This document shows positions 39,157 through 53,357 of a DNA stretch of 64,000 nucleotides, piece by piece. This stretch comes from Streptomyces cucumeris (GTDB taxonomy: Bacteria > Actinomycetota > Actinomycetes > Streptomycetales > Streptomycetaceae). The DNA lies in NCBI RefSeq assembly GCF_024295805.1, contig NZ_JANCLX010000003.1:1-64000 (forward strand). Reading direction: 5' to 3'. The position numbers and the translations under genes are program-made. Position 1 is the first letter of the stretch. Every line of letters begins with the position of its first letter. The notes under the pieces are model-generated. The model was not told where the DNA came from and did not search any database. It worked only from the letters and a program-made list of their open reading frames with translations.

Positions 39157-40299
39157 TCATGTCCGGACCGTCGGCGCCACCGGTCCGCGTGTCCCGCCGG
39201 GAATGCCGCCCTCGCGCAGCCGGTCCAGTTCCGCCAGGGCTGCGGCGTGCCGCTCGCGCGGCACGACCGCGTCACACACCAGCAGATAGGCGCCGACGGG
39301 GGTCAGCAGCAGCGCCTCGTCCCCGTACCAGTGCACCCGCGCGGTCTCCAGGCCCCGCAGTTCATCGGGCGACCCCAGCGCGATGCCGTGCACCGGGCCG
39401 CCCGCGGCCAGGGTCTCCCGCACTCCGGTGGGCTCCGGTCCGGGCTCCGTCCCGGCCCGCCGGGCCCGTTCGGCCTCGGCGGCCTCTTCCAGCCGCGGCA
39501 GAAGACCGGTGAAGCGGTCCACCGGGAGCAGCTCGGAGGTGTACGTGATCAGCTCCACCAGTTCCGGTGCCAGCAGCATGCGTGCGGCGGCGTCGACGAT
39601 CTCGTCCCCGGACGGTCCGTCCGCCTGGCCCGCGAGCGCGTAGAGGTCCAGCGCGTCCCGGGGGTGGAAGCGCCGCTGGAGCCGCTCCTCCGCCAGACAC
39701 ACCAACGCGGAGAGCGTGGGGTCGGCGGGGGGCAGGACCCGTACCGGTACGGCGCCGAAGTCACCCAGCAGCCCCGCCGTCGACAGCTCCACCCGGTGCT
39801 CCGGGTCGAGCAGCGGCTCCTCCGGCGGCCAGACCAGCGTGACCAGCAGATGGTGTTCCGGTCCCACCACCGTCACCCAGACCCGGTCCGGCTCACCGCG
39901 TGCGCTCAACTCCCGTACCGCACGCCACAGCTGGCGTTCGTCGGGCACGATGAGATCGACGTCGCCCTGGGGGCGCAGCACCCCCGGAGGGTAGGCGGCG
40001 GCCAGCGCCGGCCCCTTCATCACGGTGTACGGCAGATCACCGGGCAGCTCCGCGACCAGGTTCCGGTAGTGCTCGGCGCGGCGCCGGGCCCTCGCCAGTT
40101 CACCCGCGGCCGCCGGGCCCATGGGCTCACCCTCCCGCTGGAGCGCGGACAGCACGAGAAAGGGGAGCGTGTAATGCGCCTGCCGCGCCGTGTAGACCAG
40201 ACGGCCCGGCCCTTCCTCCTCCGAGACGTCGAAGATGTCGTACAGCGTGCGCACCGTGATATCGGATGCCGATGTGGGTGAGACGGTCATGAAATCCAT
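39157..40299 (-). CDS. Nucleotidyltransferase-fold protein (NTP_transf_5-like)
   Basis: A 380-residue protein. ATG at 40299 is used; ATG at 40290 is equally possible. The key motif is YTVMKGPALAAAYPPGVLRPQGDVDLIVPD (about 108-137): the MKG-x(5)-Y...R-x-x-G-D-x-D-(L/I)-(L/I)-V pattern of the polymerase-beta superfamily, with both metal-binding Asp residues present. Homologues of this type act on carbohydrates, peptides or unknown acceptors in natural-product loci. The remaining domains are helical with no other recognised motif. It is the leftmost gene of the unusual cluster, divergent from the first cupin gene across a 264-base promoter region that shares sequence blocks with the Gmk/peptide promoter region. 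Confidence 0.8.
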   Translation of the reverse strand: MDFMTVSPTSASDITVRTLYDIFDVSEEEGPGRLVYTARQAHYTLPFLVLSALQREGEPMGPAAAGELARARRRAEHYRNLVAELPGDLPYTVMKGPALAAAYPPGVLRPQGDVDLIVPDERQLWRAVRELSARGEPDRVWVTVVGPEHHLLVTLVWPPEEPLLDPEHRVELSTAGLLGDFGAVPVRVLPPADPTLSALVCLAEERLQRRFHPRDALDLYALAGQADGPSGDEIVDAAARMLLAPELVELITYTSELLPVDRFTGLLPRLEEAAEAERARRAGTEPGPEPTGVRETLAAGGPVHGIALGSPDELRGLETARVHWYGDEALLLTPVGAYLLVCDAVVPRERHAAALAELDRLREGGIPGGTRGPVAPTVRT

Positions 40300-40329
40300 C
40301 GTGAAAGCGCCCGGTAATGGCGGCAAGTC

Positions 40330-40460
40330 GTTGTCCGGTGCCCTTCGATGAGGCACCGGGAAGCGAATGACCCGGTGAAATGGGCGCGGTTGAGGCCATC
40401 GGAAGAGTTTCCCGCCCGTCTTTTCGTTGCCCGTTGCGCAACGAAAGCGGAAACCCGGAT
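40330..40460. promoter_or_regulatory. Shared cis-regulatory blocks, copy A
   Basis: The divergent region between the nucleotidyltransferase and cupin genes holds two blocks that recur at 44606-44760. Block 2 here is GTTGTCCGGTGCCC (40330-40343) continuing through TTCGATGAGGCACCGG, which includes an 8-bp inverted repeat CCGGTGCC/GGCACCGG. Block 1 here is GTTGCCCGTTGCGC (40426-40439), overlapping the perfect palindrome CGTTGCGCAACG (40432-40443) and followed by GAAAGCGGAAACCCGGAT. The pattern GTTG-Y-CCG-K-TG-Y-SC is common to all. I infer binding sites of a cluster-specific regulator. Confidence 0.7.
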
Positions 40461-40563
40461 CCCCTTGAGTGCCATGGGCGCCGCGATGAGACTTGACCGC
40501 CGCGGGACATCCGCCTGTGGCCGTCTCCCGGTCACGGACCGCTCGTGCCCGAAAGGACGGCCC

Positions 40564-51078: not shown

Positions 51079-51093
51079 CTTCGGAGCACCCCC

Positions 51094-52056
51094 ATGGCAC
51101 AGCACCCCGCATCCGCCCTCCCGGCGGCCACCGCCACCGCGCTGACCGGCGCACTGCGACTGACCGGCGACGGGCCCGAGGGCTGGTTCACCGGCCCCTG
51201 GCACGACACCACCCTCGCCGACGGCACCTGTGTGATGCGCCGCCGCACCCTGCTGCGCACACCGGGCAGCGCCTCCGTCTGGCGCCGGAGCACGGCCGAC
51301 ACCGTCCTGTTCTTCCACACCGGGGCCCCGGCCGCCGTCGTGACCTCCGGCCCCGGCGCGACCGACACCACGGTGCTGGGCGCCGACGCGGCCGTCGGCC
51401 AGGTGGCGCAGTGCACGGTGCCCGCGGGCACCTGGCACGCCCTCGCCCCGCTGGCCGAGGAGTCCCTGCTGTGGAGTGAGGCGTCGGTGCCCGGTGACGC
51501 CGAGTGGCAGACCGCGGACCCGGCCCGGCTGCCGGACCCGGTGCCGCCGACAGCGGATGTCCGCGCGCCGCGTGCGAGCGGCACCACGGCGGAACTCCTC
51601 GGTATGACGGCACATGTCGAGGGCGGCTACTTCCGCGAACTCTACGCATCCGCCGGCACGGTCCGGACCCCGGTCGGAACAAGGCTGTTCGCCAACACCA
51701 TCCACTATCTGCTGGACTGCCGGTCGCCCGTGGGCCATCTGCACGGCAATGTCTCCGACATCACGCACTTCCTGCACTCCGGCGGCCCGATCACCTATCT
51801 GATGCTCGCTCCGGACGGACGTCTGGAGAAGCAGGTGCTCGGCTGGGACGCCGACCGCGGCCAGGTCCCGGTCTTCACCTGCCCGGGCGGCTGGTGGAAG
51901 ACCAGTTTCCTGCCCGAGGGCGTGTCGGAAGGGCTCATCAGCGAGATCGTGGCCCCGGGTTTCGACTTCGCGGACCAGCGGATGGCCACCGCCCAGGATC
52001 TCGTCCACGCCTCCCCCGATGACGCCCGGCGTCTCGCGCCCTACCTGAGCCACTGA
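51094..52056 (+). CDS. DUF985/cupin_5 bicupin protein 2
   Basis: A 320-residue protein with GGAG eight bases before ATG 51094. The C-terminal half (about 165-300) is a clear DUF985 domain: ELLGMTAHVEGGYFRELYAS, NTIHYLLD, GHLHGNVSDITHFLHSGGP, LGWDADRGQVPVFTCPGGWWK, and SEIVAPGFDFADQRMATAQDL. The N-terminal half (about 20-135) is a diverged copy. It is a paralogue of the protein at 40564-41421 with better conserved histidines. Such jellyroll proteins bind small ligands, and some may isomerise or epimerise nucleotide sugars. It lies 15 bases after the SAHH-like gene and 11 bases before the aminotransferase gene. Confidence 0.82.
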   Translation: MAQHPASALPAATATALTGALRLTGDGPEGWFTGPWHDTTLADGTCVMRRRTLLRTPGSASVWRRSTADTVLFFHTGAPAAVVTSGPGATDTTVLGADAAVGQVAQCTVPAGTWHALAPLAEESLLWSEASVPGDAEWQTADPARLPDPVPPTADVRAPRASGTTAELLGMTAHVEGGYFRELYASAGTVRTPVGTRLFANTIHYLLDCRSPVGHLHGNVSDITHFLHSGGPITYLMLAPDGRLEKQVLGWDADRGQVPVFTCPGGWWKTSFLPEGVSEGLISEIVAPGFDFADQRMATAQDLVHASPDDARRLAPYLSH

Positions 52057-52067
52057 CGGAGGAACCC

Positions 52068-53357
52068 ATGACCACCCCCGACATGCCCGTCCGCAACGTG
52101 GCCACATCCGGCCAGGCCACCGGAACCGACGGACCGGACCTGCTGCGCCGGGCCCACCGGGTCATCCCCGGCGGTGTCTGGGGACACAACCGGTACCCCG
52201 CCGCGTACGACCCCGACGCCTATCCGGCGTTCGCCGAACGCGGCGAGGGCGCCCGGCTGCTGGGCACCGACGGCCGCTGGTACAACGACTTCCTGTGCGG
52301 CTACGGCGCCATGATCAATGGCTATGGGCGCCAGGAGATCGACGGGCCCGCCGCGCGCCGCGCCGCGGGCGGCCCCACGCTGACCACCGCCACCCCGGCC
52401 TCGGTGGAACTCGCCGAGCTCCTCGTCGACCTGGTCGACGGCGCGGACTGGGCGACCTGGGGCACCAGCGGATCCGACGCCACCTGGACCGCCCTGCTGC
52501 TGGCCCGTGCGCACACCGGCCGGCGGACGGTGGCCGTGGTCGACGGCGCGTACCACGGCTCGCATGGCTGGTGCGGCTGGTGCAACGCCCCGCACGGGCG
52601 GCACACCGACGACCGCGCCGCCGTGCTCACCCTGCCGTGGAACGACATCGGGGCACTCGACGCACTCTTCGCCGCGGAGGGTCACCAGCTCGCCGCGGTC
52701 ATGATCACGCCCTTCCACCACCCCATCCCGGGTGCGTCCGAACTGCCCGACCCCGCCTGGCTGTCGGCCCTGCGCGCCCATTGCGACCACTGGGGCACCC
52801 TTCTGATCAGCGACGACGTACGAGCCGGCTTCCGGCTGGACCTGCGGGGTTCTCATACGGCGCTGGGCTTCTCGCCCGATCTCGTGTGCTTCTCCAAGGC
52901 GCTGGGCAACGGCTGGCCCATCGCCGCGGTGGTCGGACATGCGCGGCTGCGGGCCGCCGCCGACGAGATGTTCCTGGCCGGCACGTTCTGGAACTCCTCC
53001 CCCGCCATGGCCGCGGCGGCCGCCAATCTCGAACTCCTGCGCAAGGAGGACGGCGTCGCCCGGATGCGTGAGGCGGGCGAGGCGTTCGGCTCCGGCCTGG
53101 TACGGCTCGCGGAGCGCCACGGCGTTCCCCTGCGGATCAGCGGACCGGCCGCCATTCCCACGGCCACCGTGGACGGGGACGAGGACCACGCCTGGATGCG
53201 GCGGTTCGCCGTCCATATGGCGGCGCAGGGCACCCTCATCCATCCGATGCACAACTGGTTCGTGTCCACCGCCCATGACAGCGCCGTGGTCGAGGAGACA
53301 CTCGCACACGCGGACACCGCCATGGCCCGGACCCAGGAGGAGGGACCGGCCGCGTAG
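52068..53357 (+). CDS. Class III PLP aminotransferase (glutamate-1-semialdehyde aminomutase-like)
   Basis: A 429-residue protein with GGAGG before ATG 52068. The class III motifs are present: LLRRAHRVIPGGVWGHNRY at the N-terminus, TWGTSGSDATWTALLLARA, GAYHGSHGW, LLISDDVRAGFRLD (the D-(D/E)-V element), and the PLP lysine Lys277 in CFSKALGNGWPIAAVVG. It most resembles glutamate-1-semialdehyde aminomutases and the sugar or keto-acid aminotransferases derived from them. As the last gene of the cluster, next to a 3'-oxidising SAHH paralogue, it could transaminate a 3'-keto-nucleoside or a carbonyl made on the peptide. Confidence 0.88.
   Translation: MTTPDMPVRNVATSGQATGTDGPDLLRRAHRVIPGGVWGHNRYPAAYDPDAYPAFAERGEGARLLGTDGRWYNDFLCGYGAMINGYGRQEIDGPAARRAAGGPTLTTATPASVELAELLVDLVDGADWATWGTSGSDATWTALLLARAHTGRRTVAVVDGAYHGSHGWCGWCNAPHGRHTDDRAAVLTLPWNDIGALDALFAAEGHQLAAVMITPFHHPIPGASELPDPAWLSALRAHCDHWGTLLISDDVRAGFRLDLRGSHTALGFSPDLVCFSKALGNGWPIAAVVGHARLRAAADEMFLAGTFWNSSPAMAAAAANLELLRKEDGVARMREAGEAFGSGLVRLAERHGVPLRISGPAAIPTATVDGDEDHAWMRRFAVHMAAQGTLIHPMHNWFVSTAHDSAVVEETLAHADTAMARTQEEGPAA

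What the first reader, a model, noticed from the sequence alone, without database searches (positions are those of the whole stretch)
39157..53357. Candidate new biosynthetic system: ribosomal peptide plus nucleotide-handling enzymes
One compact gene set combines a 49-residue peptide, an M16 peptidase and an ABC exporter (peptide maturation and export) with a guanylate kinase, an NDK-like/nucleotidyltransferase fusion, another nucleotidyltransferase, an SAHH paralogue, two bicupins and a class III aminotransferase (nucleotide chemistry). It has no lanthipeptide cyclase, YcaO, radical SAM, ATP-grasp or NRPS/PKS gene. I know of no characterised pathway with this set. The simplest reading is a peptide modified with, or conjugated to, a nucleotide.
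Basis: partly seen in the sequence, partly recalled or inferred. Interest (0 to 1): 0.93.

Follow-up and report, generated by a model that had tools for sequence, protein, structure and literature searches.

The report
Likely nucleotide-tagged ribosomal peptide family
A Streptomyces gene cluster carries what is most likely a 17-residue ribosomal peptide, one of a family of tiny conserved peptides that we found intact in 24 of 25 related actinobacterial clusters, and its enzymes are predicted to build an unusual nucleotide and likely attach it to that peptide before trimming and export.

Summary
The gene set is real and conserved, with corrections. The peptide is most likely 17 residues (44879-44932, MQHVSAMRPRLDKIKKR), not 49. 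Of 25 related cluster loci examined, 24 hold an intact 17-25 residue relative and the 25th a decayed one. In 15 of 24 no earlier in-frame ATG/GTG start exists. A core of M16 peptidase, GNAT-fold protein, nucleotidyltransferase (NT5, PF14907) and three-gene ABC exporter accompanies the peptide; enzyme cassettes vary around it. The C-terminal tail tracks the cassette (0 of 5000 permutations; 1 of 2000 without near-duplicates), the N-terminal part does not. This fits a conserved leader plus short modified core: an apparently undescribed RiPP-like family. The window's cassette (SAHH paralogue, class III aminotransferase, Cupin_5, guanylate-kinase and NDK paralogues) occurs intact in six clusters and decayed in a seventh. 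An NDK-like enzyme is present in 13 of 25 loci, from two families. Best reading: the cassette makes a modified nucleoside triphosphate that NT5 puts on the peptide (inferred, untested), working like microcin C without its ThiF-type MccB. The nucleotidyltransferase half of the NDK fusion looks degenerate.

The parts
37871..39142 (+). XRE/NB-ARC-type regulator (HTH_31 plus AAA/NB-ARC), co-conserved with the cluster
   Evidence: Pfam; homologues at 33-41% identity in the same-cassette loci
39157..40299 (-). NT5: nucleotidyltransferase PF14907 with GD(V/L)DL motif; predicted to transfer a nucleotide to the peptide
40564..41421 (+). cupA: Cupin_5 (DUF985) protein, two stretches, predicted sugar- or nucleoside-modifying
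   Evidence: Pfam E 1.1e-17
41451..43682 (+). NDK-like protein with conserved KP and N-x-V-H motifs, fused to a degenerate-looking Pol-beta-type nucleotidyltransferase domain
   Evidence: PDB NDK 4di6 E 3.5e-7; alignment A1; D-x-D loss
43700..43800 (.). Palindromic GC homopolymer tract between convergent genes, probably a terminator with sequence artefact
   Evidence: sequence; spurious tRNA call
43820..44497 (-). Guanylate-kinase paralogue; P-loop kept, recalled guanine-contact positions changed
   Evidence: Pfam E 8.1e-26 (longer frame); PDB 7u5f E 8.8e-30; alignment with the genome's other Gmk
44606..44613 (+). GTTGTCCG site upstream of peptide; further copies at 40330 (+) and 44753 (-); candidate operator
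   Evidence: 3 sites in 18 kb against about 0.55 for even base composition, all in divergent intergenic stretches
44879..44932 (+). Precursor peptide MQHVSAMRPRLDKIKKR (17 aa); RPRLDK-type conserved part plus variable tail
   Evidence: translation; family of 24 intact peptides; start check and tail-cassette tests
45025..46215 (+). M16 peptidase with HxxEH; predicted leader removal
   Evidence: Pfam E 7.8e-22 and 1e-18; alignment A3
46212..47051 (+). GNAT-fold protein, predicted acyl- or aminoacyltransferase
47048..48010 (+). ABC exporter ATPase, DrrA-like
   Evidence: Pfam and NCBIfam
48007..48774 (+). ABC-2 permease
   Evidence: Pfam
48771..49571 (+). ABC-2 permease
   Evidence: Pfam
49630..51078 (+). 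SAHH (AdoHcyase) paralogue, core catalytic sequence blocks kept; predicted to act on a nucleoside
51094..52056 (+). cupB: Cupin_5 protein, two stretches
   Evidence: Pfam E 2.4e-48
52068..53357 (+). Class III (PLP) aminotransferase, glutamate-1-semialdehyde-aminomutase-like
   Evidence: Pfam E 9.8e-37; NCBIfam below its cut-offs; 61.9-66.1% identical in five intact clusters

Best explanation
This is a cluster of an apparently undescribed family built round a conserved tiny ribosomal peptide, whose enzymes are predicted to make a modified nucleoside triphosphate that the nucleotidyltransferase NT5 would likely attach to the peptide's short C-terminal part before the predicted leader removal and export. 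Shown: a 17-25 residue peptide with an R-P-R-L/I motif recurs beside M16, GNAT-fold, NT5 and ABC-exporter genes in actinobacteria, and its tail varies with the enzyme cassette. Inferred for the window: the SAHH paralogue would oxidise or dehydrate the sugar of an adenosine-like nucleoside (as its homologue AgmF does in angustmycin A). The aminotransferase and Cupin_5 proteins would remodel the sugar. The guanylate-kinase and NDK paralogues would phosphorylate the 5'-monophosphate to the triphosphate. NT5 would transfer the nucleotidyl group to the peptide core (-IKKR here), with the H...RPRLDK part as recognition leader. M16 would cut the leader, the ABC transporter would export the product, and the GNAT-fold protein would acylate it, possibly for self-protection. 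It would work like microcin C (a peptidyl nucleotide) without being a member.
For: Peptide: 24 intact relatives in 25 cluster loci. The pattern used to find them required P and a basic residue (R or K) after it, so R-P-R in 24 of 24 is partly by construction. Positions not required are also kept: L or M before the motif in 24, K in 23, H in 22, D in 21 of 24. At the two Arg codons all 296 pairwise codon differences are synonymous; at the following L/I, 150 are synonymous and 23 not. None of the 25 loci was fetched by the peptide. Tail against cassette: 0 of 5000 permutations, leader control 1109 of 5000; without three near-duplicates, tail 1 of 2000 and leader 927 of 2000. NT5 in 23 of 25 loci; GDLDL-type motif in the nine rows of A4. 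NDK-like enzyme in 13 of 25 loci from two families, with KP(D) and N-x-x-H motifs in the rows read. Further phosphotransfer-type enzymes in five more loci: weakly HprK-related in L062 and its homologue in L063, PPDK-type in L064 and L068, APH in L031. Guanylate-kinase paralogues keep the P-loop but change recalled guanine contacts. SAHH-homologue precedent: AgmF (PMC8599513, passages). GNAT (MccE2) and L,D-carboxypeptidase (MccF) immunity precedents in microcin C (PMC9239234, passages); an S66 L,D-carboxypeptidase homologue occurs in sibling L031.
Confidence: 0.42

Rival explanations
1. NT5 is a glycosyl-phosphate or hexose transferase (as proposed for PsmN) acting on a phosphorylated peptide; kinases and NDK-like enzymes supply phosphate and the SAHH/aminotransferase/cupin set makes an amino sugar donor. 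The product would be a glyco- or phosphopeptide.
For: PsmN precedent (PMC9266682, passages; PF14907 membership of PsmN recalled); UDP-glucose-dehydrogenase homologues in L067 and L072; weakly HprK-related protein in L062, with a 40% identical one in L063.
Against: SAHH, guanylate-kinase and NDK homologues act on nucleosides and nucleotides in known enzymes; 15 of 24 peptides, the window's included, have no Ser/Thr in the tail.
Confidence: 0.2
2. The peptide is a carrier on which a small molecule is built at the C-terminus, with the GNAT-fold protein acting as an aminoacyl-tRNA-dependent transferase; M16 then releases the small molecule, as with pearlins.
Confidence: 0.15
3. The peptide is a signal or regulatory leader peptide and the enzymes make an ordinary nucleoside antibiotic without it.
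For: Peptide often lies just upstream of M16; regulators are co-conserved; R-P-R-L-D-K resembles basic stalling motifs (recalled).
Against: In L003, L004 and L027 the peptide gene lies elsewhere, on the strand opposite to the enzyme operon; tail tracks biosynthetic cassette; M16 and exporter are core.
Confidence: 0.13
4. Two neighbouring unrelated modules (a peptide exporter and a nucleoside pathway) with no shared product.
For: Sibling clusters carry the peptide module without SAHH/GMK/NDK-fusion.
Against: In the seven clusters the modules are interleaved (NDK fusion directly before M16 in L003, L004, L005 and L027).
Confidence: 0.05

Closest known systems
Microcin C and McC-like peptidyl nucleotides
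   Same: Short ribosomal peptide, nucleotidyltransferase, exporter, GNAT-type protein (MccE2-like role); L,D-carboxypeptidase homologue (MccF type) in sibling L031; a 21-aa McC precursor is known in Nocardia vaccinii (PMC9239234)
   Different: No ThiF-type MccB hit; PF14907 enzyme instead; precursor with RPRLDK motif; ABC rather than the MFS exporter of E. coli McC; own NMP- and NDP-kinase paralogues
Paeninodin/pseudomycoidin lasso peptides with kinase and nucleotidyltransferase
   Same: Peptide-modifying kinase plus nucleotidyltransferase-annotated protein on a ribosomal precursor; weakly HprK-related protein in sibling L062
   Different: No lasso B1/B2/C proteins hit among the cluster genes scanned; precursor unrelated
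Angustmycin A pathway (AgmF)
   Same: SAHH homologue used for nucleoside sugar chemistry in a natural-product cluster
   Different: Angustmycin is a free nucleoside; its six-enzyme pathway as reported has no peptide, NDK or M16
Daptides
   Same: Class III aminotransferase, ABC exporter, ancillary nucleotidyltransferases
   Different: No alcohol-dehydrogenase-type oxidative decarboxylase found; window peptide has no C-terminal Thr
Bacinapeptin/paenithopeptin M16 proteases
   Same: M16 peptidases used for RiPP leader removal
   Different: Class III lanthipeptides with heteromeric M16 pair; no lanthipeptide synthetase hit here

Membership tests
RiPP (general) | Ribosomally encoded conserved precursor gene in the cluster | tested here: met
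   24 intact of 25 loci; synonymous-only change at the two Arg codons, partly by construction of the search pattern
RiPP (general) | Leader/core division | tested here: inconclusive
   Tail tracks cassette (0/5000; 1/2000 without near-duplicates), leader does not (1109/5000; 927/2000); supports it, but ancestry confounds and no cleavage was seen
RiPP (general) | Post-translational modification of the precursor | not testable with these tools
   Needs expression and mass spectrometry
Microcin C-like | MccB ThiF-type adenylyltransferase | tested here: not met
   No ThiF family hit among the window cluster genes scanned with Pfam
Microcin C-like | MccA peptide with C-terminal Asn (recalled) | tested here: not met
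   Window tail IKKR; 1 of 24 peptides (L064) ends in Asn
Microcin C-like | Nucleotide attached to the peptide | not testable with these tools
   Chemistry not observed
Lasso peptide | B (protease/RRE) and C (cyclase) proteins | tested here: not met
   No such family in Pfam scans of the cluster genes
Daptide | Oxidative decarboxylase (alcohol-dehydrogenase type) | tested here: not met
   No alcohol-dehydrogenase family hit; daptide aminotransferase model below cut-off (94.7 vs 450 bits)
Daptide | DapB-type RRE protein | not tested
   No DapB model on hand in the scans
Pearlin | PEARL (small lantibiotic-dehydratase homologue) | tested here: not met
   No such family
Nucleoside diphosphate kinase | Catalytic His in N-x-x-H and KPD lysine motif | tested here: met
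   Invariant N363/H366, near-invariant K134/P135 in A1; PDB NDK E 3.5e-7; no Pfam NDK hit for the window protein itself
Pol-beta nucleotidyltransferase (NDK fusion C-terminus) | D-x-D metal ligands | tested here: not met
   G-I-D in window, D-L-N in 11 rows, E-A-E in one, G-L-D in one; D-x-D only in three unnamed rows, P0034-P0036
PF14907 nucleotidyltransferase (NT5) | Family cut-off and GDxDL motif | tested here: met
   40.4 vs 31.2 bits; A4
Guanylate kinase | Guanine-contact residues (recalled: yeast Glu69, Ser80, Asp98 region) | tested here: not met
   Glu position is Gln in five, His in one and Glu in one of seven paralogues; next contact Leu in seven (Pro in the genome's other Gmk); Asp region changed
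S-adenosylhomocysteine hydrolase | Catalytic blocks VNDSVTKSKFDN, EETTTG, GHPSFVMS | tested here: met
   Kept in the six paralogues aligned (L005 left out); GHFDNE loop changed

The most novel reading that the evidence does not exclude
A new RiPP class: one conserved 17-25 residue leader-core peptide serves interchangeable cassettes that each make a different nucleotide or phosphate group, which a PF14907 nucleotidyltransferase puts on a core of about 4-14 residues, giving Trojan-horse peptidyl nucleotides that evolved independently of microcin C, with dedicated NMP and NDP kinases feeding a modified nucleoside triphosphate.
Probability: 0.35. Interest if true: 0.93.

Novelty: new variant of a known kind. 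Interest (0 to 1): 0.78.

Why it matters
Peptidyl nucleotides are rare; the microcin C-type antibiotics described in the paper read depend on ThiF-type MccB (PMC9239234, passages). A second, actinobacterial route with a PF14907 enzyme and its own nucleotide-kinase paralogues would give a new RiPP class, suggest a function for a family that Pfam calls uncharacterised, and offer a genome-mining handle (the RPRLDK peptide) that gene finders are likely to miss because the gene is 54-78 bases long. The variety of cassettes round one leader suggests a natural combinatorial system.

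Tried and rejected
The 49-aa reading of the peptide was set aside because 15 of 24 relatives have no earlier in-frame ATG/GTG start and the others' upstream residues look unrelated to the window's by eye; no alignment of the upstream residues was made. The antisense frames 41406-43700 (-) and 37427-39160 (-) were rejected as genes (no family; plus-strand genes are conserved). The tRNA-Arg was rejected.

Rows dropped: weak NDK hits L010-L012 (20.7-24.5 bits, taken as ordinary NDKs); L074 (GNAT hit E 2e-11, no other core gene). 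G416's NDK match is at the same place as L006 by coordinates, so it was not counted again. Homologues found only as proteins (for example P0012, P0013, P0039) were not examined in context. Motif matches in G525, G804 and G843 were not examined. In the loci, peptide candidates were picked by me from pattern hits with a ribosome-site filter; other short frames that met the loose pattern were set aside because they lacked the RPR[LI]-D/N/S/V context. Extra genes of sibling clusters were only partly scanned, so cassette lists are incomplete, above all for L030, L059, L065, L069, L071 and L072.

GNAT search depth: 14 of 333 genomes of the window's genus, 5 of 394 of its class (one of them L074), 2 of 240 of a second family. 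PADLOC and PHROGs were not scanned. NT5's sequence profile had no PDB match, and none of its Foldseek hits had E at or under 0.001. A profile of the window NDK domain did not match the second NDK-like family, whose only Pfam NDK hit is the L066 member (32.9 vs 27 bits). The HprK relation of L062 is weak (27.9 vs cut-off 200 bits); the adenylate-kinase hit of L068 is below cut-off. Homologue counts rest on the 7993 candidates sharing most words.

Literature: ten searches found no paper on this set or motif within that open library; subscription papers and preprints are not covered. Five papers were seen as passages, others as search listings.

Full report
WHAT IS IN THE WINDOW. The stretch 37871-53357 holds a regulator, NT5 (PF14907), two Cupin_5 proteins, an NDK-like fusion, a guanylate-kinase paralogue, a tiny peptide, an M16 peptidase, a GNAT-fold protein, a three-gene ABC exporter, an SAHH paralogue and a class III aminotransferase. 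The genome has a second copy of SAHH and of Gmk, taken as the housekeeping ones, so the window's are paralogues. The closest database protein to the NDK fusion is 97% identical, from Streptomyces cucumeris; 26 proteins passed E 0.001 among the 7993 best candidates of a 5.8-billion-protein search.

THE PEPTIDE. Relatives were fetched by NDK fusion, by M16 and by GNAT, none by the peptide. I examined 25 cluster loci: the window, L003, L004, L005, L006, one Umezawaea cluster (L025/L026), L027/L028, L029-L031 and L059-L073. Of these, 24 hold an intact 17-25 aa peptide with RPR[LI], and the 25th, L005, holds a decayed copy beside an SAHH-aminotransferase deletion. In 15 of 24 there is no in-frame ATG or GTG between the upstream stop and the short start. 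The search patterns required P followed by R or K, so the R-P-R invariance (24 of 24) is partly built in. Positions that were not required are kept too: L/M before the motif 24, K 23, H 22 and D 21 of 24. At the two Arg codons the pairwise codon differences are all synonymous (113 and 183); at the L/I codon 150 are synonymous and 23 are not; at H, D and K there is no synonymous change. The 7-residue motif alone is no proof: it matched 5 of 396 genomes, against 15 of 396 for the backwards control. Of those five, the window's is one and G095's is another, about 1.4 kb from a GNAT homologue.

CORE AND CASSETTES. M16 is present in 23 of 25 loci (decayed by eye in L006, not found in L071), NT5 and the ABC genes in 23 of 25 (not found in L005 and L063), and the GNAT-fold gene in 25 of 25, of which 15 were fetched by it and L005's is partial. 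Around the core:
- SAHH + GMK + NDK fusion + aminotransferase + Cupin_5 in seven loci, one of them decayed.
- A second NDK-like family in L029, L060, L061, L066, L070 and L073. In L029/L060/L061 it comes with an aminotransferase and an unknown protein; in L070/L073 with P450, dCTP-deaminase-like and LysRS-like proteins; in L066 with LysRS-like and AMP-binding proteins.
- JmjC in L062, L063 and L067, with a weakly HprK-related protein in L062 and a 40% identical one in L063.
- UDP-glucose-dehydrogenase and amine-oxidase homologues in L067 and L072.
- PPDK-type and weakly adenylate-kinase-like proteins in L064 and L068.
- S66, APH, methyltransferase and an asparagine-synthetase-A-like protein in L031.
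- Radical SAM proteins in L063, L065 and L071.
Tails after RPRLDK group by cassette: KPQ(S/D)R with JmjC, VKVKAAKA in L029/L060/L061, VVKKG in L070/L073, and an Arg end in five of the six window-type peptides (an Arg end is also seen in six of the other 18). L003 is the exception: it has VVKKG, with its only peptide beyond the exporter. The permutation test, scoring identity of the last four residues plus equal length, gave 0 of 5000 for tails and 1109 of 5000 for leaders. Leaving out L060, L061 and L073 as near-duplicates it gave 1 of 2000 and 927 of 2000. Shared ancestry contributes, and the cassette labels were mine.

MECHANISM. The inferred order is: nucleoside sugar chemistry (SAHH, aminotransferase, cupins), NMP to NDP (GMK paralogue), NDP to NTP (NDK-like), transfer to the peptide (NT5), leader cleavage (M16), export (ABC), and acylation (GNAT). 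Only the anatomy, the conservation and the tail-cassette link are shown; every catalytic step is inference. Precedents seen as passages: AgmF, an SAH-hydrolase homologue acting as a nucleoside dehydratase (PMC8599513); microcin C with MccB, GNAT MccE2 and MccF (PMC9239234); kinase PsmK and nucleotidyltransferase-annotated PsmN in lasso peptides (PMC9266682); M16 leader proteases (PMC10885120); daptides (PMC10036551).

VERDICT. The locus is a real, conserved RiPP-like family that I did not find described in the library searched (confidence about 0.8 for the family, inference from conservation). The nucleotide-conjugate reading is the best single mechanism at 0.42.

Noticed in passing
window 40330, 44606, 44753: GTTGTCCG/CGGACAAC sites sit in the cluster's divergent intergenic stretches; similar sites lie before SAHH and the peptide in L006 and between genes in L025/L026. 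Candidate operator; no site was found in L003, L004, L029 or L070.
   Followed up: partly
window 43700-43800: Long G and C homopolymer palindrome between convergent genes, probably a terminator hairpin with sequencing error; ARAGORN calls a spurious tRNA-Arg there.
   Followed up: partly
L005 (Streptomyces sp. BK340): Same cluster in decay: SAHH and aminotransferase fused by deletion, peptide copy degenerate; the same genome holds a second sibling cluster (L029).
   Followed up: partly
L006 12690-12900: M16 gene reduced, by eye, to a short remnant while peptide, NT5 and exporter remain; the peptide lacks the conserved His and Asp.
   Followed up: partly
L003 19673-19735 and L032 3408-3470: Peptide with the tail of the NDK/P450/DCD cassette type lies beside a window-type cluster next to a SARP-like regulator, suggesting a remnant of a second cluster.
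   Followed up: partly
L031 3755-9138: Umezawaea sibling cluster with S66 peptidase, APH, methyltransferase and an asparagine-synthetase-A/AsnRS-like protein, reminiscent of microcin C immunity.
   Followed up: partly
L071 10484-15216: Sibling without a detected M16 has SPASM and B12 radical SAM genes beside a longer 25-aa peptide.
   Followed up: no
window 53399-54046: 215-aa protein without any Pfam match just downstream; no tblastn match in the related loci searched.
   Followed up: partly
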